DNA of 64,000 nucleotides, taken from positions 1-64,000 of the forward strand of contig JAIRXG010000031.1 in NCBI GenBank assembly GCA_031268335.1, in the 5' to 3' direction. The notes beneath the pieces were generated by a model. That model was not told the origin of the DNA. It ran no database searches and saw only the letters and a program-made list of their open reading frames with translations. The position numbers were made by a program, and so were the translations under genes. Of the stretch, positions 13,560 to 44,550 are shown in pieces (position 1 is the stretch's first letter; every line of letters begins with the position of its first letter). Source of the stretch: Campylobacteraceae bacterium. GTDB taxonomy: Bacteria > Campylobacterota > Campylobacteria > Campylobacterales > Campylobacteraceae.

Positions 13560-13585
13560 TGGTGCGGTCGACGAGACTCGAACTC
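13560..13585. repeat. att repeat, left end of the prophage
   Basis: A 26-bp perfect copy of 44466-44491, the 3' end of the tRNA-Leu gene including the T-arm and CCA. The two copies bound the prophage, as expected for a tyrosine integrase that uses the tRNA 3' end. Confidence 0.92.
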
Positions 13586-34704: not shown

Positions 34705-34944
34705 TCACCCCTTTGTGACTAAGTCAAACGCGACGGCTTTCGGATTTTTGGCTATCAACTCTTTTTGCTTCAAGATAGACTGGATAGTAGGCTGAATGAG
34801 CAAGTTGATTACCTCACTATTGCTTATATTTTTCGCGTCTGCTATCTCCGTTACAAATTCCAAGTCCGTACAGATAAGCGACACGGTTACGCGGCTTATC
34901 TTTTTACCCTCGCAATCCACGCTTTCACCGTACAGACAACTCAT
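34705..34944 (-). CDS. hypothetical phage protein, 79 aa
   Basis: Small protein with an RHH- or helix-rich look (NISNSEVINLLIQPTIQSIL). It overlaps the Cro-like gene by 4 bp. Not recognised. Confidence 0.55.
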   Translation of the reverse strand: MSCLYGESVDCEGKKISRVTVSLICTDLEFVTEIADAKNISNSEVINLLIQPTIQSILKQKELIAKNPKAVAFDLVTKG

Positions 34945-35306
34945 TCACACTCTCCATCCACACTTTGCGCGTCGTTACTCCCACCCTCACTCTCTCCGTC
35001 ATTGCAGGCGTGGCAATCCACACCATTTTCACTCGTCTGTTCACTATCGTTACCATCATCACACCCAGTAACGCCTCGTAACTCTTGCGCACGCTTTTTG
35101 GGTGTGGTAGTATTGCTGTTGATGAAGGATTTGATGTTGGACCAAGCGTTAAGAGGAATACCCTCTTTAGATAGCTCAAGCATTTTGCTGTACGAAGGTT
35201 TGCGTCTGCCGCAAAGAATAGATTTAACACTATTATATGAATAATAGTTCTTAAGTACTGTTTTTATTTTTTGCATTTCCATTTCAAAAGTGTACATCAC
35301 GAACAC
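34941..35306 (-). CDS. Cro-like early regulator
   Basis: The first leftward gene from the operator region. Its N-terminal half has an HTH pattern (YNSVKSILCGRRKPSYSKML), followed by an acidic, Gly/Asp/Ser/Cys-rich tail unusual for Cro. The start is uncertain: GTG at 35306 lies inside the operator; ATG codons at 35297, 35282 and 35276 are possible, none with a clear Shine-Dalgarno, so a leaderless mRNA is conceivable. It faces the S24 repressor, as cro faces cI. Confidence 0.65.
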   Translation of the reverse strand: MFVMYTFEMEMQKIKTVLKNYYSYNSVKSILCGRRKPSYSKMLELSKEGIPLNAWSNIKSFINSNTTTPKKRAQELRGVTGCDDGNDSEQTSENGVDCHACNDGESEGGSNDAQSVDGECE

Positions 35307-35345
35307 TTAATAAAAAATAAAACGTAGTGGTCTATATGTACACTA
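35288..35345. promoter_or_regulatory. operator pair A (between cro-like gene and repressor)
   Basis: Two 21-bp sites of 8-5-8 form: AAGTGTAC-atcac-GAACACTT at 35288-35308 and TAGTGGTC-tatat-GTACACTA at 35325-35345, centres 37 bp apart. A TATAAT box for the repressor (35355-35360) follows. The first site overlaps the cro-like start. The matching pair lies inverted at 40061-40118. Confidence 0.8.
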
Positions 35346-35380
35346 CTCAAAGTGTATAATTCTAAAATTAGGAGAAATGA

Positions 35381-36094
35381 ATGACATTCAATAGTAAACT
35401 TCTTAAAGAGCTTATGAAAGAAAGCGACTATACTCAAGAAAAATTAAAGAAAGAATTTGATTTACGAGGTAGCGAGATAACTATTGACGGCATAAAAAAT
35501 TGGAATAGAACAGATAATCCGAGAGTTCCCGAACTTGAAAAAATTATTATTCTTGGAGAAATTTTTAAGGTCAATCCATTAGATTTTTTAAATGACAAAA
35601 AGGTCAACAAATATAACTCACAACAAAATGTAGTTAACAACGTCATACTCCTTGACAAAATAAATCTGCGCGCAAGCGCCGGAGGCGGAGCTTATAGCGA
35701 TTTACCTATTGAAACCACAAAAATGGCTATAGATAAAAGCGCGATCGCATTAGAAAAAGGGCTTGACCCGAAAAATCTTAAAGTTATTGAAGTTATCGGC
35801 GATAGTATGGAACCGGAGTACTATGAAAGCGACTTTGCTGTTGTTGATATGGTAAACGGACGCTATGATTTTACTAAAATAGGCGGCGTATATGTAGTCC
35901 GTGTTGCTGACATGATATACATCAAAAAAGTTGAATTTTTACCAGAAAACAAAATCAAACTAATATCCCTCAACAAACAATACGGCGATATGTATCCGCA
36001 CAAAGACGGATACGAGTACGAGATACTCGGCAAAGTCTGCGGTAAGATACACTTTTCAAAAGGACTGTTTTTTGATAGGCAGGGGATAGAGTAA
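35381..36094 (+). CDS. S24 family phage repressor (CI-like)
   Basis: A 237-residue repressor with an N-terminal helix-turn-helix (TQEKLKKEFDLRGSEITIDG) and a C-terminal LexA/CI-type self-cleaving domain. The scissile region is near RASAGGGAYS, the catalytic Ser in VIGDSMEPEY and the Lys in the IYIKKVEF strand. It should repress both operator pairs, and RecA-stimulated cleavage would induce the prophage. RBS aggag is 6 nt before the ATG. Confidence 0.9.
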   Translation: MTFNSKLLKELMKESDYTQEKLKKEFDLRGSEITIDGIKNWNRTDNPRVPELEKIIILGEIFKVNPLDFLNDKKVNKYNSQQNVVNNVILLDKINLRASAGGGAYSDLPIETTKMAIDKSAIALEKGLDPKNLKVIEVIGDSMEPEYYESDFAVVDMVNGRYDFTKIGGVYVVRVADMIYIKKVEFLPENKIKLISLNKQYGDMYPHKDGYEYEILGKVCGKIHFSKGLFFDRQGIE

Positions 36095-36119
36095 ACTAAT
36101 CAAAATTTAAGGAGAAAAA

Positions 36120-36545
36120 GTGAGTTATATCAATGAAACTCTCATTAGTGGCGAAGAAGTGGTCTATGGAGGCAAGATAAGCGTTTGGTTTTTATTGCCA
36201 AAAATACTTTTAGGAGTATTGTTTCTGGTTTTTGCGATAGCTTATGTATGGTTGATAGCTATTGCAGTACTGTTTTTTGCTCTGGCTTATATTCAGTATA
36301 TATCTACCGAATTAGCTTTTACAAATAAAAGGGTTATAGCCAAATTTGGATTTATCAAAAGAGTAACGGTAGAATTAAACATAAATAAGATAGAAAGTAT
36401 TCAAGTAGAGCAAAGCATATTAGGTAGGATATTTAACTATGGTTCCATAGTTATAGCAGGCGCTGGTAATCCTCAAGCACCGATAGCAGGCATCTCAAAA
36501 CCTATGATATTTAGAAATAAATTTATGGAATACACAAGTAAGTAA
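36120..36545 (+). CDS. PH-domain (bPH2) membrane protein
   Basis: A 141-residue protein: an N-terminal strand, two membrane segments (about 25-65) and a bacterial PH (bPH2/YdbS-type) domain with LAFTNKRVIAKFGFIKR and ELNINKIESIQVEQS. GTG start with aaggagaaaaa upstream. A longer protein with a nearly identical C-terminal domain is encoded at 53276-53845 on the chromosome, so the phage copy was probably captured from a host. It lies between repressor and nuclease gene. Confidence 0.85.
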   Translation: MSYINETLISGEEVVYGGKISVWFLLPKILLGVLFLVFAIAYVWLIAIAVLFFALAYIQYISTELAFTNKRVIAKFGFIKRVTVELNINKIESIQVEQSILGRIFNYGSIVIAGAGNPQAPIAGISKPMIFRNKFMEYTSK

Positions 36546-36564
36546 AGTGAAATAGGAGTAAGAC

Positions 36565-37635
36565 ATGGTTGATTTCAAAGACCAAATCAAAGCGCTCGGC
36601 GAACGCGTTGCTAAGCTTAAAGAACAAGTTTTAACCGAAGAAGCTACAAAAACGGCTTTTATTATGCCTTTTATCAGGGAATTGGGTTACGATATTTTTA
36701 ATCCTGCAGAAGTTGTTCCCGAATTTGTAGCGGATATAGGAAAAAAACAAGGTGAAAAAATAGACTATGCGATACTGAAAGACAACGAGCCCATTTTGCT
36801 AATTGAATGCAAAACGGCAGGTAACGACTTAAATGTAAATAACGAATCTCAACTGCTTAGATATTTTCACACTACTAAAGCAAAATTTGCTATTCTTACA
36901 AATGGTATAGAATATAGGTTTTACACCGATTTGGTTGAAAAAAATAAAACGGACGAAAAGCCATTTTTTGTGTTTGATATAACGCGCATAAAAGACAATC
37001 AAATTGATGAGTTGAAAAAATTTCATAAGTCATATTTTGATTTCAACACTATTTTAAGTGCAGCAAATGAATTAAAATACACAAGTGAATTAAGACAATT
37101 AATGAACAATGAAATCTCAAATCCATCGCCTGATTTTGTCAAGCATTTTGTAAAACAAATTTACCACTGGCCAATAACGCAAAAAATTCTCGAACGATTT
37201 ACAGGACTTGTTAAAAAATCATTTCAACAACACCTTAATGATATTGTTACCGATAGATTGCAAGTAGCATTAAATAAAGAAACAGCCGAGCAACAAAAAA
37301 TACAAGAAGAGAGTAAAAAAGAGAGCGAGCTTGACGCAAAAATTGTAACCACCCAAGAGGAGTTAGACGCTTTTTATATCATAAGGGCTATTTTATGCTC
37401 CAAAGTCAAATTAGAAAGAGTAGCGCACAGAGACGCTCAATCATACTTTGCTATTCTTTTTGACGATAACAACAGAAAAACTATTTGCAGACTATATCTC
37501 ACAAGCACAAGAAAACAGATAGGCATATTTGACAGCGAGAAAAAAGAGACAAAATTTGAGCTTGAAAACATTGAAAATATCTACAGTTATGCCGATAAGT
37601 TATTGAGCGTAGTTGAATTTTATGATAAAGGGTAA
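36565..37635 (+). CDS. HsdR_N-like nuclease (type I restriction R N-terminal domain)
   Basis: A 356-residue protein with an N-terminal PD-(D/E)XK nuclease domain of the HSDR_N type: Asp in KIDYAILKDNEPILLIECK with the EXK pair at its end, and TNGIEYRFYTD after it. There is no helicase, so this is a solitary nuclease-like protein, widespread near mobile elements but not characterised. RBS aggag. It lies in the immunity block and is expected to be expressed in the lysogen. Confidence 0.85.
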   Translation: MVDFKDQIKALGERVAKLKEQVLTEEATKTAFIMPFIRELGYDIFNPAEVVPEFVADIGKKQGEKIDYAILKDNEPILLIECKTAGNDLNVNNESQLLRYFHTTKAKFAILTNGIEYRFYTDLVEKNKTDEKPFFVFDITRIKDNQIDELKKFHKSYFDFNTILSAANELKYTSELRQLMNNEISNPSPDFVKHFVKQIYHWPITQKILERFTGLVKKSFQQHLNDIVTDRLQVALNKETAEQQKIQEESKKESELDAKIVTTQEELDAFYIIRAILCSKVKLERVAHRDAQSYFAILFDDNNRKTICRLYLTSTRKQIGIFDSEKKETKFELENIENIYSYADKLLSVVEFYDKG

Positions 37636-37638
37636 TGA

Positions 37639-37818
37639 ATGTTGGGTAAATGTGCATCTTGCGAACATGAAGTAGATATAAATGCTGAATATTACCCAAA
37701 GTGTGGTAGAAAAAACCCGACTAGCACCATATTGAGTACTATACTTGGTAATGCAGTAATAATATGTATTGCAATAGCAATATTTTTTGCTTTTTTCTAT
37801 TTCTATTTTGACAAATGA
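37639..37818 (+). CDS. 59-residue zinc-ribbon membrane peptide
   Basis: Too short for most gene finders. It starts ATG at 37639, 4 bp after the nuclease stop, and reads MLGKCASCEHEVDINAEYYP, then KCGRKN and one membrane segment at the C-terminus. This is the zinc_ribbon plus helix plan, but the second knuckle has YYPKCG where YCPKCG would be expected, so one zinc ligand is missing. Confidence 0.65.
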   Translation: MLGKCASCEHEVDINAEYYPKCGRKNPTSTILSTILGNAVIICIAIAIFFAFFYFYFDK

Positions 37819-37912
37819 AAATTGGCAATCAGAGATATAATATGGCGGCAAAAATGTATTTATTCCGATGTCTTTACGTGATAGCGTAGTTTTAATTTAC
37901 TACCTATATAAT

Positions 37913-39958
37913 TCATCTTATTTTATTTCTTAATATATTTAAAAATACTTGATTTCTTGCATCTGCTTCTACTAATAGTTGATCAAACGATAAAACGTTA
38001 ATATGAGCTTTAGAATTTTTTGCATAATAGTAATAAGATGAAACATTGTTTTCTTTATCTCCAAAAGCATAAGGATCAAATTCTTCTGCCTCTACTAAAG
38101 CTTCTCTTGTTTCCTCATCTAAGTCAATAATTGTATAAGTAAAAATACTACGAATATTTTGTCCTTCTAAAACTTTTCTAATATATACGGGATACCTTCT
38201 TAATTGATTAATTGCTTTCATTTTAGCATCAATATTTTCATATAATCTTTTGAATTCTATTAAAAGTACATCTCTATAATTATCTTCATCTTCAGAGAAA
38301 AACATTAATAAATCTGGTTCTTTGCCTTTGTGATAATCCTTTATTTTATCGCTTGAAAAATCATCTCCTTGAATTTCTTTTGCTATTGATTGAATTGTTT
38401 TATCACTTGCAACATAAATGTAAGACATAAATTTATCATCAAATATCCATATATTATTTGCATATCTATTATCAATATTTGTACTGGACTTACCTCTTTC
38501 TAAAAAAAGATCATGTATATCTCCTTCATCAAACGCTTTTTTATCTAATTTTGTTTTTTGAGAAATATTCATGAGCATGTCAATAATAGTTTGTCTATAT
38601 GCCATATAGCTTGCTAATTGCTCTTTTCCAACAGACGTAAATTGATTTTTAATTTCTTCATATTTGTCTTTATTAAAATTATCATTTTTAATTGAATTAA
38701 TAAATTTTTTAATTTTTTCTTCTGTCTGTTCTCTTTTTTTATAAAAATTTGTTCTTGCTTTATCCAAAAGGTCTTTTATTGGCATAGTGATTTGAGTATA
38801 CTCATCTATATAGTCTATAAGATATGGATATTCTTCACATAATTTATTTTTTTCTTTTTTAAAGTTTTCTTCAAGTTCTGGAAATTCAGTTTTGATTATG
38901 TTGCTTAACAAATTTCTTAATTTTTCATTTATTTCATGAAAAACAATAGGAGTTTCAAGTGAAACATTATTTTGATCAGCCTTAATAATAAAATCTGTAC
39001 GAGAGTCTTTTACTTTATCATTAAAATAATTTGATGTTAAGCAAAAAATTCCGCTATAGCCTTCTGGTAATGACAGCAATCCTGTGTCATTTGGAAATTT
39101 AGTAACTTTTCTATCAGATGCTCCATAAAATTGCTCAAGAGAATCCTTTTCTTCAGATTTTTTAATTTGATAAGTTAAAATAAATGTTTCTTTGATGTTT
39201 ATATCTTCAACATTCTTTTCAATAACAAAACTATCGACTTTGAACCCATCATTATCAAATAATTCCTGTAAAATTTTTTCATCAATAATTTCATTATTAT
39301 CATCAAAACTTATTCTAAATTGAATTTTCTTATCTCTAAGCCATATAAATAACGGCAATAGATTTATAAAAATTTTTTCTTTTATTTTTTTAATTTCTGA
39401 TGATCTATTTATATTTCCCTTGTGCTCTTGTCCTTTTTTGTTATCACATTTAATTAAAAATTCCATATAGTTTTTATTAATATTAGCATATTGGCTGCTG
39501 GTCCAACTTGTATTGCTATTGCTTGAAATTCTTTCTATTTCTTCAACATTATTTTTATTAAAATTTTTATTAAAGTTAATTTTTACTTTTTGTCCCATTT
39601 TGCTGTTAGTATCTTTTGTTTGACTATCAATAGTAATATCATCAAATACTTTTAAACACAAAACTCGACCACTGCCTAATCCACCAATTCGTATTTTCGA
39701 ATTACTCCATAATGTTAAAAATGATTCAATATTATCATCAGTAAATCCATCCCCATTATCTTTTACTGTGTATCCGATAAGTAAATTATCTGTATCTTTT
39801 TCAAAAGTAATACCTATAGTATCGGCATGTGCTTGAAAAGCATTAACTATAGCTTCGCACAATGGTTGTAAAAACAAAATATCATCATTAATATTTTTAA
39901 TAGCTCTTTCTAAATTAACTTTCATATCACTATGCCTAAATGTAGATTCTAATAACAT
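37913..39958 (-). CDS. GHKL (HSP90-like) ATPase with C-terminal nuclease-like domain
   Basis: A 681-residue protein. The N-terminal Bergerat ATP fold has PLCEAIVNAFQAHAD (E/N pair near residue 40), DNGDGF and GLGSGR. The middle is charged and partly coiled. The C-terminus carries a PD-(D/E)XK-like motif: KEPDLLMFF, then VLLIEFKRL (D-x-EXK). This architecture suggests ATP-switched DNA cleavage, as in MORC-like or restriction-type defence proteins; not identified further. Strong RBS (ggggaggaggt). Very AT-rich. It points against its neighbours and has its own promoter with a G10 tract. Confidence 0.82.
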   Translation of the reverse strand: MLLESTFRHSDMKVNLERAIKNINDDILFLQPLCEAIVNAFQAHADTIGITFEKDTDNLLIGYTVKDNGDGFTDDNIESFLTLWSNSKIRIGGLGSGRVLCLKVFDDITIDSQTKDTNSKMGQKVKINFNKNFNKNNVEEIERISSNSNTSWTSSQYANINKNYMEFLIKCDNKKGQEHKGNINRSSEIKKIKEKIFINLLPLFIWLRDKKIQFRISFDDNNEIIDEKILQELFDNDGFKVDSFVIEKNVEDINIKETFILTYQIKKSEEKDSLEQFYGASDRKVTKFPNDTGLLSLPEGYSGIFCLTSNYFNDKVKDSRTDFIIKADQNNVSLETPIVFHEINEKLRNLLSNIIKTEFPELEENFKKEKNKLCEEYPYLIDYIDEYTQITMPIKDLLDKARTNFYKKREQTEEKIKKFINSIKNDNFNKDKYEEIKNQFTSVGKEQLASYMAYRQTIIDMLMNISQKTKLDKKAFDEGDIHDLFLERGKSSTNIDNRYANNIWIFDDKFMSYIYVASDKTIQSIAKEIQGDDFSSDKIKDYHKGKEPDLLMFFSEDEDNYRDVLLIEFKRLYENIDAKMKAINQLRRYPVYIRKVLEGQNIRSIFTYTIIDLDEETREALVEAEEFDPYAFGDKENNVSSYYYYAKNSKAHINVLSFDQLLVEADARNQVFLNILRNKIR

Positions 39959-40025
39959 ATTGTATACCTCCTCCCCTTAATTTCTAATCTAAACTCTTCT
40001 AAACAACAAATACAGAAGAGTGTTA

Positions 40026-40044
40026 CCCCCCCCCCGCCATTATA
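40026..40044 (-). promoter_or_regulatory. TATAAT promoter with a G10 tract at the predicted start site
   Basis: On the minus strand TATAAT (40039-40044), preceded by ttttatgc, is followed by ggc and ten G residues (40026-40035). The expected +1 falls within the run. It drives the GHKL ATPase gene. Tract-length change or initiation slippage would alter expression. Confidence 0.65.
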
Positions 40045-40060
40045 GCATAAAATTTCAATA

Positions 40061-40118
40061 AAGTGTACTAAAAGACCATATATTTTAATATTGCTATAAG
40101 TGTTCTTATTGTACACTA
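40061..40118. promoter_or_regulatory. operator pair B (inverted copy of pair A)
   Basis: AAGTGTAC-taaaa-GACCATAT at 40061-40081 and AAGTGTTC-ttatt-GTACACTA at 40098-40118; centres 37 bp apart, as in pair A, and in inverse orientation. It lies between the ATPase gene (leftward) and the right early operon (rightward), as lambda OR/OL flank cI and rex. Confidence 0.8.
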
Positions 40119-40148: not shown

Positions 40149-40384
40149 ATGAACCTACGTTTTACAAAGTCTTTACTAAAAGAACTTGAAAAAGCTAAAA
40201 CGAATGCTGACGAGCTTTTGGTGCGTATCCAATACATACTGGATGCGGCGAGGATAATACATGGGATTTTGTAAGCGTCATAAGCCGTCATTTCGGCGCA
40301 CAAACACTTAGGGTAATAGTAGACAAGACCAATTATAAAATCTTGCCTAATGGCTATATATCTATATTGGAGGCTAAACAATGA
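40149..40384 (+). pseudogene. first gene of the right early operon, frameshifted
   Basis: From ATG 40149 (RBS aaagga) the frame ends after 41 codons at 40274. A second frame continues with EDNTWDFVSVISRHFGAQT and ends naturally at 40384, overlapping the next ATG. Loss of one base near 40250 (gcggcgagg) would explain the split of a gene of about 77 codons. Confidence 0.55.
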
Positions 40385-40515
40385 TTTATCACACTAAATT
40401 TTACATAAATGAAAAGGGTATAGGTTTCAGCGTCGCCCGATTTGAAATCAAAAAAGGCAGGATAATAGACCGCATTAGTGGCAAAGACGTTGGAGAGTTA
40501 AGGAGAACAAAATGA
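40381..40515 (+). CDS. 44-residue hypothetical phage protein
   Basis: Small basic protein (MIYHTKFYINEKGIGFSVAR at its start) whose ATG overlaps the stop of the previous gene and whose TGA overlaps the next ATG. Such tight coupling supports it. Not recognised. Confidence 0.6.
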   Translation: MIYHTKFYINEKGIGFSVARFEIKKGRIIDRISGKDVGELRRTK

Positions 40516-40757
40516 CCATCCGCAACAACTTAAGCCAAAATGACTTACACGTGATAGAACCAAAATGTTACGACACAGATGAAACCAAAGCTTTGGAAAA
40601 CTTTGAGTCAAAGCTTGAGGATTTATTGGAAGAGGTCTTGAACTTAGGCATTGACAGCGAGGACGTTAGCGGAAGTATAACTGGGACTTTTGATTTTGTT
40701 TTAGCCAAAAGAGCCCAAATGCGTAGAGAGTGGAACGCTAATCCATTCAAATTTTAG
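40512..40757 (+). CDS. hypothetical phage protein, 81 aa
   Basis: Acidic, helical protein of unknown function. ATG overlaps the previous stop (ATGA); aaggaga precedes it. Ends 9 bp before the next gene. Confidence 0.65.
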   Translation: MTIRNNLSQNDLHVIEPKCYDTDETKALENFESKLEDLLEEVLNLGIDSEDVSGSITGTFDFVLAKRAQMRREWNANPFKF

Positions 40758-40766
40758 GAGTTAAAA

Positions 40767-41054
40767 ATGCTAAGAAAAAAATATGACAAAATATTCAATG
40801 ATGTATTAAAAAAGCCAAGATTTGATTATTGGCTAAACGAAAATTTAGACTTTAGAAAGTACATAGGGAAAAATGTATCTATAGATTATTTGGGTGATAA
40901 ATATAATGGAATGGTGAAAGACATAAAAATAATAGAATACTCAAAATCTGTGTCTTTTACTGTACTTGAATTAGAGTTCGGGGGGATACAAAAGATTTTA
41001 AAATCATTTATATTGATGATATTGAAGTATATCCATCATAAATTAATAGCTTAA
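40767..41054 (+). CDS. hypothetical phage protein with a G6 tract, 95 aa
   Basis: RBS aggag precedes the ATG. After a G6 run (40980-40985) the present frame reads a poor tail (IQKILKSFILMILKYIHHKL). With seven G residues the frame would read GGDTKDFKIIYIDDIEVYPS to a stop at 41041, a more natural C-terminus. Either the gene is frameshifted or the tract varies. Not recognised. Confidence 0.55.
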   Translation: MLRKKYDKIFNDVLKKPRFDYWLNENLDFRKYIGKNVSIDYLGDKYNGMVKDIKIIEYSKSVSFTVLELEFGGIQKILKSFILMILKYIHHKLIA

Positions 41055-41063
41055 GGATAAAAA

Positions 41064-42107
41064 ATGCAATTTCTTAAAAAACCTACAAATAGACAAGCTT
41101 ACGCAAAAGTAGGTATATATGGAGACACTGGAAGCGGTAAGACTACTACTGCGGCAAAGATAGGCATAGGACTCGCCCATATCAAAGGAAACAGGATAGC
41201 TTTTTTTGACACTGAAGGCGGTTCGGACTACCTAATCAAAACTTTTGAGAGCAATAACGTTGAACTGTTTGTATCGGACATAAGCAGGGACTTTCGCTAT
41301 CTTTTGAATTTTGTAAAAGAAGCCGTCAAAGAAAACATTGACGTCATTATAGTAGATAGCATTACTCATATCTGGAAACAATTACAAAAAGACTATCTGG
41401 ATGAACTGAACGAACGAAACTTAAAGAATGGACGCAAAAAAAGATTTGCGCTTGAATTTCAAGACTGGAGATTTATCAAGGATAGATGGCAAGAGTTCAC
41501 AGACCCTTACCTTACAAGTCCAATTCACGCTGTTATTTGCGGTCGTATGGCTCAAATATATGATTATCAGGAAAATGAAAGCACAGGCAAAAAAGAGCTA
41601 ATCACAAACGGTACAAAAATGAGCACCGAAAAAGAGCTTGGCTATGAACCCTCGCTTTTGATAGAGATGATGAAAGAGTTTGATAAAGATAAAAATAGAC
41701 TCGTCAATAAAGCTATCATAGAAAAGGATAGAACGGACCAGCTAAACGGAAAGATATTCTATATGCCCGATTATCAAACTTTTAAGCCCCATTTTGATTT
41801 TTTAAATATCGGCGGCACACAGATGAGCATAAAAGCCAAATCCGAACAAGTTTTCAGCGACGATATAGGCGACGACGGATTTGGCGCAGAGAGACGAAAA
41901 CGCGACATTTGGTGCGAAGAAATACAAGGACTTATACTTAAATACTTCCCGTCTCAAAGCGCGGAAGATAAAAAAGCCAAAGCGGATTTGATAGAAGAGG
42001 TCTTTGGTACGAGAAGCTGGACTAAAGTGGAAAGTATGAATTCTGAAGATTTGAAACTCAAATTTGACGAGCTCAAAAATGTTCTTGATAAAAAGTTTCA
42101 TTCGTGA
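41064..42107 (+). CDS. Sak4-like RecA-fold ATPase (phage recombinase)
   Basis: A 347-residue protein with Walker A GDTGSGKTTTAAK near residue 18 and a Walker B-like VIIVDSITHIWKQL; the FDTEGGSDYL motif is typical of phage nucleotide-binding proteins of the Sak4/AAA_24 type, which act in single-strand annealing-linked recombination. It is the largest gene of the right early operon and is followed by small genes of likely related role. Confidence 0.83.
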   Translation: MQFLKKPTNRQAYAKVGIYGDTGSGKTTTAAKIGIGLAHIKGNRIAFFDTEGGSDYLIKTFESNNVELFVSDISRDFRYLLNFVKEAVKENIDVIIVDSITHIWKQLQKDYLDELNERNLKNGRKKRFALEFQDWRFIKDRWQEFTDPYLTSPIHAVICGRMAQIYDYQENESTGKKELITNGTKMSTEKELGYEPSLLIEMMKEFDKDKNRLVNKAIIEKDRTDQLNGKIFYMPDYQTFKPHFDFLNIGGTQMSIKAKSEQVFSDDIGDDGFGAERRKRDIWCEEIQGLILKYFPSQSAEDKKAKADLIEEVFGTRSWTKVESMNSEDLKLKFDELKNVLDKKFHS

Positions 42108-43261: not shown

Positions 43262-43534
43262 ATGTTAATAACTAAAAAAAGATTATCAGAACTTTCAGGG
43301 CTAACGATTAACAGCATTGACAGACTAATAGCACAAGGTATATTCAGAGAAAATTTACATTACCGTAAGGTGAGTGAACGTAAAATTCTATTTGATGAAA
43401 ATGCCTTGAGTATTGCCAATCTAAAGGATATTAATGACAATATATATAAGGAACGGGAAACTATGGGTAAGCTTATATCAGAATGGACGGAGGGTACGAA
43501 AATCCACAAAGCTTGCCGATACAAGAGAGAATAG
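43262..43534 (+). CDS. HTH excisionase-like protein
   Basis: A 90-residue protein with an N-terminal winged-helix/MerR-like motif (ITKKRLSELSGLTINSIDRL). It lies directly before the integrase gene and overlaps it by 101 bp in another frame, so its last third is encoded by integrase codons. Position and fold fit an excisionase or integrase regulator. Confidence 0.6.
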   Translation: MLITKKRLSELSGLTINSIDRLIAQGIFRENLHYRKVSERKILFDENALSIANLKDINDNIYKERETMGKLISEWTEGTKIHKACRYKRE

Positions 43535-44453
43535 GCGGCGAATTAAAGGGGAGTTATTTCCTCTTTTGAAAAAAACGGATTTTTCGCCCAAAAAAACTGT
43601 TGAATACTATTATCATGAAATGATGAAATATAAGCACATTAAACATACCACTTTAGAAAGGTATGTGTCTATATATGAAAATCATATCAGTAAATTTAAG
43701 GATTATGCGATTAATGAGATTAAGCCTGCGCTTGCGAAAAAGTGGGCAAATACTATTAATCTAAGCCCTAAATCCATAAGAATGATAGTTAATGTATTCT
43801 CTCAAATAATAGACGAGGCTATACTAAATGAGGAGGTAGAGAAAAATCCTTTTAAAACCGTTAGGCTTCCAAAACTCAAAAAGTATAAACCGCAACCATT
43901 TAGCGAGGAGGAAATCAAGCTTTTACTTGAACGCTCTCAAGGCTGGTTTAAAAATGTGCTTGGGTTTTTGTTTAATACTGGCATGAGAATAGGAGAGGTA
44001 TTGGCTTTGAACTGGAGCGATATTCAAGACGACTTTATAGTTGTTGATAAAACTATTCGTAAAGGAGTAATAGGAACCGTTAAAACGGAAAATGAGAGAA
44101 GGATACCGATTTTTAACGTATTACGCTTTTTTATAAAGTCTCAACGGTCTATCTCAAGAGGACAAAGGATTTTCCAAAACACAAAGGGTGCTGACAGCTT
44201 GCAAAAAAAGTGGCAAAGTCTTTGTAATAAATGCGGGTTAGAAGGAAGGGTGCTTTATCAAGCGAGACACACGTTCGCCATCAAAGCGTTGGACAGCGGA
44301 AGATTTAGAGCTAGTCAAGTAGCTTATATGCTTGGACATACGAGCCTAAAAATGCTTTTTGAAAAATATGCTAAATTTATAAAGTCCGAAATAGAAGAAA
44401 TCGACATGACTTTTAATGTTTTGGACACAAATTTAGTCACAAGATGTGCATAA
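43434..44453 (+). CDS. int: tyrosine recombinase / phage integrase
   Basis: A 339-residue integrase. The N-terminal arm-binding part reads MTIYIRNGKLWVSLYQNGRR; the catalytic domain has Arg in NTGMRIGEVLAL, YQARHTFAIK (box II; the first His of HxxR is Tyr here), LGHTSLKMLFEKY with the nucleophile Tyr. Start: ATG with aaagga 6 nt upstream. It ends 12 bp before the tRNA 3' end, the standard location for a tRNA-targeting integrase. Confidence 0.92.
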   Translation: MTIYIRNGKLWVSLYQNGRRVRKSTKLADTRENRRRIKGELFPLLKKTDFSPKKTVEYYYHEMMKYKHIKHTTLERYVSIYENHISKFKDYAINEIKPALAKKWANTINLSPKSIRMIVNVFSQIIDEAILNEEVEKNPFKTVRLPKLKKYKPQPFSEEEIKLLLERSQGWFKNVLGFLFNTGMRIGEVLALNWSDIQDDFIVVDKTIRKGVIGTVKTENERRIPIFNVLRFFIKSQRSISRGQRIFQNTKGADSLQKKWQSLCNKCGLEGRVLYQARHTFAIKALDSGRFRASQVAYMLGHTSLKMLFEKYAKFIKSEIEEIDMTFNVLDTNLVTRCA

Positions 44454-44465
44454 AGCCCGAAACAA

Positions 44466-44491
44466 TGGTGCGGTCGACGAGACTCGAACTC
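44466..44491. repeat. att repeat, right end of the prophage
   Basis: The 26 bp shared exactly with 13560-13585; here it is the 3' part of the intact tRNA-Leu gene, so integration keeps the tRNA functional. Confidence 0.92.
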
Positions 44492-44550
44492 GTACACCCG
44501 AAGGCACTACCCCCTCAAGATAGCGTGTCTACCAATTCCACCACGACCGC
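44466..44550 (-). tRNA. tRNA-Leu (anticodon GAG)
   Basis: An 85-nt class II tRNA including the encoded CCA. Acceptor stem GCGGTCG pairs with CGACCGC; anticodon stem CTATC/GGTAG encloses the loop TTGAGGG, giving anticodon GAG; a long variable arm and a T-arm follow. It is the integration target of the prophage. Confidence 0.95.

What the first reader, a model, noticed from the sequence alone, without database searches (positions are those of the whole stretch)
35288..40118. Lambda-type immunity region bounded by two inverted operator pairs, with candidate defence cargo
Four 21-bp sites of the same 8-5-8 form (AAGTGTAC-N5-GAACACTT type) occur as two pairs, 35288/35325 and 40061/40098. Both pairs have centres 37 bp apart, and pair B is the inverse of pair A. 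They flank the S24 repressor, a bPH2 protein, an HsdR_N-like nuclease, a zinc-ribbon membrane peptide and a GHKL ATPase-nuclease. As with lambda OL-rexBA-cI-OR, genes between the operators would be expressed in the lysogen. Two nuclease-type proteins, a membrane PH protein and a GHKL ATPase together look like an undescribed exclusion or anti-phage module.
Basis: partly seen in the sequence, partly recalled or inferred. Interest (0 to 1): 0.85.

Follow-up and report, generated by a model that had tools for sequence, protein, structure and literature searches.

The report
Prophage defence bay between twin operators
A dormant virus in this Campylobacter-like bacterium keeps its master repressor and a set of probable anti-virus genes between two mirror-image repressor-binding sites, and sister viruses keep the same frame but carry different binding sites and different defence genes, so the frame behaves like a swappable defence slot.

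Summary
Four 8-5-8 sites form two mirror-image pairs (35288/35325 and 40061/40098, centres 37 bp apart). The site pattern occurs nowhere else in the 1.65-Mb genome. They bound the CI/S24 repressor, bPH2, HsdR_N, zinc-ribbon and GHKL-nuclease genes of a ~31-kb prophage.

The frame recurs. Ten to eleven further S24 prophages of the family carry an inverted copy of the repressor's upstream region 1.9-6.3 kb downstream, above null; two more (L060, L079) show it weakly. Operator sequence tracks the repressor's N-terminal DNA-binding half (Mantel p=0.007), not its C-terminal half (p=0.78). Of five sister cargoes scanned, four hold known or candidate defence genes (kinase/phosphatase, PDC-M30, type IIG R-M plus another GHKL nuclease, SIR2).

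bPH+HsdR_N recur together beside an unrelated repressor. GHKL is separate cargo, a paraMORC3-like GHKL/PD-(D/E)xK protein. Five of six other close relatives sit beside a D12 adenine methyltransferase; here a related orphan enzyme lies elsewhere in the chromosome.

Extras: the GHKL leader carries a G10 tract, and a sister prophage shares promoter, leader and first codons but has a different GHKL body. Binding, expression and defence activity are inferred, not shown.

The parts
13560..13585 (.). attL: 26-bp repeat of the tRNA-Leu 3' end; left edge of the ~31-kb prophage
   Evidence: Consecutive 16-mers shared with 44466-44491; tail tape measure, terminase, NinG and Ant genes lie inside
34941..35282 (-). 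first leftward lytic gene, small Cro-position protein (phrog_20300); likely start ATG 35282, just beyond operator A1
   Evidence: a homologue (CGRRxPSY motif) holds the same place in L079
35288..35308 (.). operator A1 (strong): AAGTGTACATCACGAACACTT; abuts a possible -10 of the leftward lytic promoter (TATTAA, 35312-35307, minus strand)
35325..35345 (.). operator A2 (degenerate), over the -35 region of the repressor promoter
35355..35360 (+). TATAAT, probable -10 of the repressor/cargo transcript
35381..36094 (+). CI-type repressor: N-terminal DNA-binding half plus Peptidase_S24 autocleavage domain (phrog_4, phrog_6201)
36120..36545 (+). bPH_2 membrane protein (phrog_3707 'membrane-flanked domain')
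   Evidence: 83% identical copy at the same place in G147
36565..37635 (+). solitary HsdR_N-like PD-(D/E)xK nuclease (phrog_4225); D67, E81, K83, Q96 invariant
   Evidence: AF2 mean pLDDT 88
37639..37818 (+). 59-aa protein with two CxxC pairs and one apparent transmembrane segment; possible zinc ribbon, weak match
   Evidence: sequence; Pfam DZR E=0.034
37913..39958 (-). GHKL ATPase + C-terminal PD-(D/E)xK nuclease (E478, D549, E568xK570), paraMORC3-like; sits in the B-end slot
40026..40035 (-). G10 tract (C10 on + strand) immediately after the -10, at the probable start of the GHKL transcript
   Evidence: one of about 7 G>=9 tracts in the genome
40039..40044 (-). TATAAT of the extended -10 TATGCTATAATG, probable leftward lysogenic promoter of GHKL
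   Evidence: same sequence at the same place in L060, L061 and L079
40061..40081 (.). operator B1 (degenerate), over the -35 region of the GHKL promoter
40095..40100 (+). TATAAG of TGCTATAAG, probable -10 of the rightward lytic promoter, overlapped by B2
   Evidence: read from sequence
40098..40118 (.). operator B2 (strong): inverse of A1
40149..42107 (+). rightward early lytic genes, including an AAA_24/Sak4-like ATPase at 41064-42107
43434..44453 (+). tyrosine integrase beside tRNA-Leu(gag) 44466-44550, whose 3' end is attR

Best explanation
This is a lambda-like immunity region in mirror order, used as a defence-cargo bay. SHOWN by sequence: lytic genes point outward from both ends; each end has a two-site operator whose strong site abuts the lytic gene or its probable -10 and whose weak site lies over the -35 region of an inward TATAAT. 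INFERRED: CI binds both ends, shuts the two outward lytic promoters, and leaves two inward transcripts running in the lysogen: CI-bPH-HsdR_N-zinc ribbon from end A and the GHKL nuclease from end B. When CI self-cleaves, both lytic arms fire. INFERRED: the GHKL-S5 ATPase clamps DNA and licenses its C-terminal nuclease against incoming phage DNA, possibly discriminating by adenine methylation; HsdR_N with the membrane bPH protein acts as a second nuclease, possibly at the membrane. Repressor DNA-binding half plus operators, and the cargo, are exchanged between prophages while the frame is kept. The G10 tract in the GHKL leader may tune or phase-vary expression (inferred).
For: Unique, mirror-image two-site operators. 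Of 68 S24 repressor genes tested (the window's and those of family genomes), 10-11 others have an inverted downstream copy clearly above shuffles while direct-orientation scores stay near null; L060, L079 and the window itself were recognised by inspection or local alignment. Twenty-one S24 genes in HsdR_N-bearing viral contigs from elsewhere show none. Operator similarity follows CI N-terminal similarity (rho 0.37, p 0.007) and not C-terminal similarity (rho -0.13, p 0.78); window and L061 share the CI C-terminus at 77% but neither N-terminus nor operators. A TATAAT-like inward promoter lies at the B end, with extended -10 in most of 14. Sister cargo: Ser/Thr kinase + PP2C, PDC-M30A with DUF5131/PDC-M30B, type IIG R-M with specificity subunit plus a second GHKL nuclease, SIR2/PDC-S25. 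L079 shares B promoter, leader and first codons with the window but has a 25%-identical GHKL body. GHKL motifs and the catalytic D-ExK residues are invariant across 41 homologues, E478 nearly so; the AF2 model (pLDDT 86) matches MORC/TopoVI-B/Hsp90/MutL. A GHKL+PD-(D/E)xK protein of the same layout, VcSduA, needs both activities for phage defence (PMC12137116).
Against: No expression or binding data. A simple sigma-70 scan finds no promoter excess (22 found, 27 expected), and the TTTTATGCTATAATG promoter is not phage-specific, since it also precedes a chromosomal response-regulator gene. The window's own score in the automated inverted-copy test is only marginally above null (18 against a maximum of 17). 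The -10 to operator distance differs between the two inward promoters (67 against 74 nt from the pair start), so CI may not act equally on both. Only five sister prophages had cargo scanned, and one of them (L128, one protein) gave only a weak Sel1 hit. No PADLOC model matches the window's own bPH, HsdR_N, zinc-ribbon or GHKL proteins.
Confidence: 0.72

Rival explanations
1. The GHKL gene is the restriction half of a methylation-based system whose modification half is the orphan D12 adenine methyltransferase in the host chromosome; the prophage restricts DNA lacking the host's own mark.
For: Five of the six other close relatives found (41-49% identity; Sulfurimonadaceae, Campylobacterales, two Arcobacter, Campylobacter RGIG8913) are followed by a D12 methyltransferase 'MNYIGSKxKL', directly in four and two genes on in RGIG8913. 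This genome has one such enzyme far from the prophage, 65% identical to the L171/L172 partners, more than those are to the L174 partner (47%). GHKL and this methyltransferase subfamily co-occur in the family: 5 of 8 against 20 of 145, Fisher p=0.003.
Against: A 41% relative in G393 has no methyltransferase beside it and no match in a 99%-complete genome (the empty search had no positive control in that genome). The co-occurrence test pools distant GHKL subfamilies and ignores phylogeny. Recognition sequence unknown.
Confidence: 0.3
2. The second operator pair only provides long-range CI cooperation (DNA looping), and the cargo is neutral hitch-hiking DNA without defence function.
For: Paired inverted operators several kb apart are what lambda OL/OR looping uses (established knowledge). 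HsdR_N and bPH families have no tested function that I found.
Against: Sister intervals hold recognisable defence genes; catalytic residues are invariant in GHKL and HsdR_N; HsdR_N follows repressors in phages of several phyla.
Confidence: 0.15
3. bPH and HsdR_N form a two-part membrane nuclease that cuts DNA at injection, functionally like SNIPE, and this pair rather than GHKL is the main exclusion system.
For: The pair is kept together at 83%/80% identity beside an unrelated repressor in G147; SNIPE is a membrane nuclease that cuts injected phage DNA, and some homologues carry PH domains (PMC13190303).
Against: The pair was seen in only two prophages; in G145 and in the 80 viral loci examined HsdR_N has no bPH neighbour. 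SNIPE's nuclease is GIY-YIG with DUF4041, unrelated to HsdR_N.
Confidence: 0.25

Closest known systems
Phage lambda immunity region (OL-rexBA-cI-OR)
   Same: Repressor and lysogenic cargo lie between two inverted operators; lytic promoters fire outward on both sides; S24-type CI
   Different: Two sites per operator instead of three, mirrored order, a second inward (convergent) lysogenic transcript from the far operator, and interchangeable multi-gene cargo
paraMORC3 GHKL-endonucleases (Iyer et al. 2008, PMC2292703)
   Same: N-terminal GHKL ATPase motifs, S5-like region, C-terminal E-D-ExK restriction-endonuclease fold, patchy distribution
   Different: Membership assigned here from motifs and fold only; this copy is phage-borne beside a CI operator with a G10 leader
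VcSduA, GHKL-type Shedu of Vibrio cholerae (PMC12137116)
   Same: GHKL N-terminus plus PD-(D/E)xK C-terminus; anti-phage activity of VcSduA needs both
   Different: No match to the Shedu domain PF14082; profile comparison with a PF14082-bearing GHKL protein aligns only the ATPase part
phrog_4225 endonuclease of temperate phages
   Same: Same family (2.9e-128) and common lysogeny-region position
   Different: Here followed by further cargo inside a twin-operator frame, which was not found in other phrog_4225 viral contigs tested
Prophage defence loci (P2/P4 hotspots PMC9122126; KKP PMC11341870; Tha PMC11087260)
   Same: Defence genes carried by prophages, variable at a fixed position in P2/P4; kinase/phosphatase cargo in L060 recalls KKP
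   Different: Slot is delimited by inverted repressor operators and keeps its own promoter-leader at one end

Membership tests
lambda-type immunity region | CI-type repressor gene between two operator regions in inverted orientation | tested here: met
lambda-type immunity region | three sites per operator region | tested here: not met
   two sites per region; the claim is therefore 'works like', not 'is', a lambda immunity region
lambda-type immunity region | same repressor recognises both operators | tested here: inconclusive
   same motif at both ends and co-variation with CI N-terminus; no binding data
lambda-type immunity region | Cro-type gene first on one lytic arm | tested here: inconclusive
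   small gene at 34941-35282, phrog_20300, no annotated function
paraMORC3 | GHKL ATPase motifs | tested here: met
   E35, N39, D67, G69, G95, G97, R98 invariant in 41 sequences; HATPase_c_3 2.1e-9
paraMORC3 | S5 domain after GHKL | tested here: inconclusive
   Foldseek alignments of ~400 columns to MORC3 and MutL N-terminal modules, TM-scores by target 0.44-0.54; domain not scored separately
paraMORC3 | C-terminal E-D-ExK restriction-endonuclease fold | tested here: met
   E478, D549, E568xK570 conserved; strand-strand-helix core modelled at 550-596
Shedu (type with GHKL) | SduA_C domain PF14082 | tested here: not met
   no Pfam hit at E<=0.1; family search does not ring in G000; hhalign covers GHKL only
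type I restriction enzyme HsdR | N-terminal PD-(D/E)xK nuclease | tested here: met
   invariant D67, E81xK83
type I restriction enzyme HsdR | SF2 translocase motor and HsdM/HsdS partners | tested here: not met
   356 aa, no helicase domain, no M/S genes in the interval
restriction-modification pair | cognate methyltransferase next to the GHKL nuclease | tested here: not met
   none in the interval; related orphan enzyme at G000:C28:38297-39292
phase-variable locus | length variation of the G tract between cells or strains | not testable with these tools
   single assembly; tract length 10

The most novel reading that the evidence does not exclude
Campylobacterota prophages have evolved a standard, operator-delimited defence bay: CI locks both ends, two inward lysogenic promoters feed interchangeable anti-phage cassettes, and the distal slot keeps promoter, leader and start codons while gene bodies are swapped. 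In the window the slot holds a phase-tunable (G10 leader) GHKL nuclease that borrows the host chromosome's orphan adenine methyltransferase for self-recognition.
Probability: 0.2. Interest if true: 0.8.

Novelty: new variant of a known kind. Interest (0 to 1): 0.55.

Why it matters
If right, the pair of mirror-image operators is a sequence landmark that finds lysogen-expressed cargo, and hence candidate anti-phage systems, in Campylobacterota prophages without relying on known defence families. It also gives matched repressor/operator sets for studying immunity specificity, and a natural test of whether a prophage nuclease can rely on a chromosomal methyltransferase.

Tried and rejected
Fixed four-gene exclusion module: rejected, because G147 has bPH+HsdR_N without the rest and GHKL homologues occur independently. 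Shedu membership: PF14082 not met. Generality of twin operators to all HsdR_N phages: 21 S24 genes tested in viral contigs, none. TTTTATGCTATAATG as a phage-specific promoter: rejected, also chromosomal. Single-sequence IMG/VR scan with HsdR_N found nothing and the GHKL scan found one distant copy; alignment-based scans worked better. HMMER searches against PDB sequences: no hit for HsdR_N, weak MutL/PMS2/FixL hits for the GHKL region. Foldseek of HsdR_N gave no match at E<=0.001; the best restriction-enzyme match was DrdV at 0.013. PADLOC: no model for the window cargo. G145's HsdR_N is not beside CI or bPH.
Full report
WHAT IS THERE. The window lies in a 1.65-Mb Campylobacteraceae-type genome (contig C7). 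A prophage of about 31 kb runs from a 26-bp attL (13560-13585) to the 3' end of tRNA-Leu (44466-44491), with integrase, terminase, tail tape measure, NinG and anti-repressor genes. The finding sits in its regulatory centre. All four sites are at the stated coordinates, in two pairs with centres 37 bp apart, and pair B is the inverse of pair A. A looser form of the pattern, written from these sites, occurs in the whole genome only at three of them, with no hit for the reversed control. In each pair the strong site touches the lytic gene or a TATAAG/TATTAA-like element, and the weak site lies over the -35 region of an inward TATAAT.

THE FRAME RECURS. I fetched S24-repressor loci from other genomes of the family and asked, for 68 repressor genes, whether the 220 bp upstream of the repressor has an inverted copy within 10 kb downstream, against shuffled sequence. 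L061, L145, L075, L076, L101, L152, L073, L128, L103 and L147 are clearly above null and L159 somewhat. Direct-orientation scores stay near null; the largest excess there is about 6. The window itself and L060 are only marginal in this automated test (18 against 17, and 20 against 16) and were recognised by inspection, as was L079. Most operator sequences differ from one another. Across the 14, operator similarity follows the CI N-terminal half (Mantel rho 0.37, p 0.007) and not the C-terminal half (rho -0.13, p 0.78). The clearest pair is the window and L061: CI C-termini 77% identical, N-termini and operators unrelated. Twenty-one S24 genes in viral contigs that carry the same HsdR_N family but come from elsewhere show no such twin.

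THE CARGO. In L060 the interval begins with the same bPH (83%) and HsdR_N (80%) beside an unrelated repressor (26% identity), then a Ser/Thr kinase and a PP2C phosphatase; L061 has PDC-M30A and a DUF5131/PDC-M30B protein; L079 has a type IIG restriction-methyltransferase, a specificity subunit and a second GHKL nuclease; L159 has a SIR2 protein (PDC-S25); L128's slot gene gave only a weak Sel1 hit. I scanned ten proteins from five sister prophages; the others were not scanned. The interval is therefore a good candidate defence bay, but enrichment was not measured against a control set.

HsdR_N. The protein is phrog_4225, a solitary PD-(D/E)xK nuclease with invariant D67, E81, K83 and Q96. It lies downstream of the repressor, directly or after one or two small genes, in annotated phages of Streptococcus, Fusobacterium, Enterococcus, Acetoanaerobium, Terrisporobacter and Corynebacterium; Porphyromonas is an exception. 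Among 66 usable IMG/VR loci, 20 have an S24 gene within three genes upstream; HTH or S24 families are the commonest in a sample of upstream neighbours. More than 550 viral contigs encode it. The model is confident per residue (pLDDT 88) but matches restriction enzymes only weakly.

GHKL. The 681-aa protein has GHKL motifs, an S5-like region and a C-terminal E478-D549-E568xK570 nuclease; its model resembles MORC, TopoVI-B, Hsp90 and MutL. This is the layout of paraMORC3 (PMC2292703) and of VcSduA, whose ATPase and nuclease are both needed for defence (PMC12137116). The Shedu domain PF14082 is not detected. At least 233 relatives lie in genome contigs. Five of the six other close relatives are followed by a D12 adenine methyltransferase, directly in four and two genes on in the fifth; a sixth, in G393, is not, and no relative of that methyltransferase was found in its genome. 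The window copy has none beside it, but the chromosome carries a related orphan enzyme, 65% identical to two of the partners. Among neighbours of more distant GHKL genes, DNA methylase (4 of 35 proteins) and specificity-subunit (3 of 35) families are the most frequent.

SLOT EXCHANGE AND G10. L079's GHKL gene shares the promoter, part of the leader and the first codons with the window (a 90-nt near-identical alignment running from the leader into the gene) while the proteins are 25-26% identical overall. The window's leader differs by about 30 nt that include a G10 tract at the probable transcription start. The genome has about seven G>=9 tracts, up to 22. In Helicobacter, a 5'-UTR G-repeat tunes tlpB through the sRNA RepG, most strongly at 9-12 G (PMC8295292). 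The leader folds with its CUCUUC segment on the ribosome-binding site (z -1.6, 15 of 200 shuffles as good); this is weak.

HOW IT MOST LIKELY WORKS. See Best explanation. Operator placement, gene order, conserved residues and recurrence are shown; CI binding, lysogen expression, defence activity, methyltransferase borrowing and G-tract tuning are inferred.

CAVEATS. The genome is 85% complete. The simple promoter scan gives no excess. Gene calls in related loci are from a greedy ORF picker, not a trained annotator. The Fisher test of GHKL/methyltransferase co-occurrence (p 0.003) ignores phylogeny. The operator/repressor correlation uses 14 loci, three of which were added by inspection. The literature searches returned no description of this frame, in a library that lacks most subscription journals.

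Noticed in passing
window 40026-40035 (minus strand, leader of GHKL): G10 tract at the probable transcription start, with a ~30-nt leader insertion relative to L079 that carries a segment able to pair with the ribosome-binding site.
   Followed up: partly
L079:2700-2790 versus window 39920-40010: Shared promoter, leader and first codons followed by a 25%-identical GHKL body: looks like gene-body exchange at a fixed slot.
   Followed up: partly
G000:C28:38297-39292 (L257): Orphan D12 adenine methyltransferase; a different, only ~33%-identical D12 relative (possibly the Cj0208 type) is the one found in most Campylobacter-family genomes searched.
   Followed up: partly
G000:C18:1862 and other contigs: About seven homopolymeric G tracts of 9-22 in the genome, typical of contingency loci; genes not identified.
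   Followed up: no
L060:12503-16015: Ser/Thr kinase operon with convergent PP2C phosphatase in the same bay, reminiscent of KKP (PMC11341870).
   Followed up: partly
L063:7304-8365 (G040): HsdR_N appears convergent to the repressor operon, i.e. in the B-end slot, in another genus; twin operators not detected there.
   Followed up: no
L073:8550-10101 and L103: Two consecutive S24 repressor genes in the same prophage; only the first shows the inverted operator copy.
   Followed up: no
   Followed up: partly
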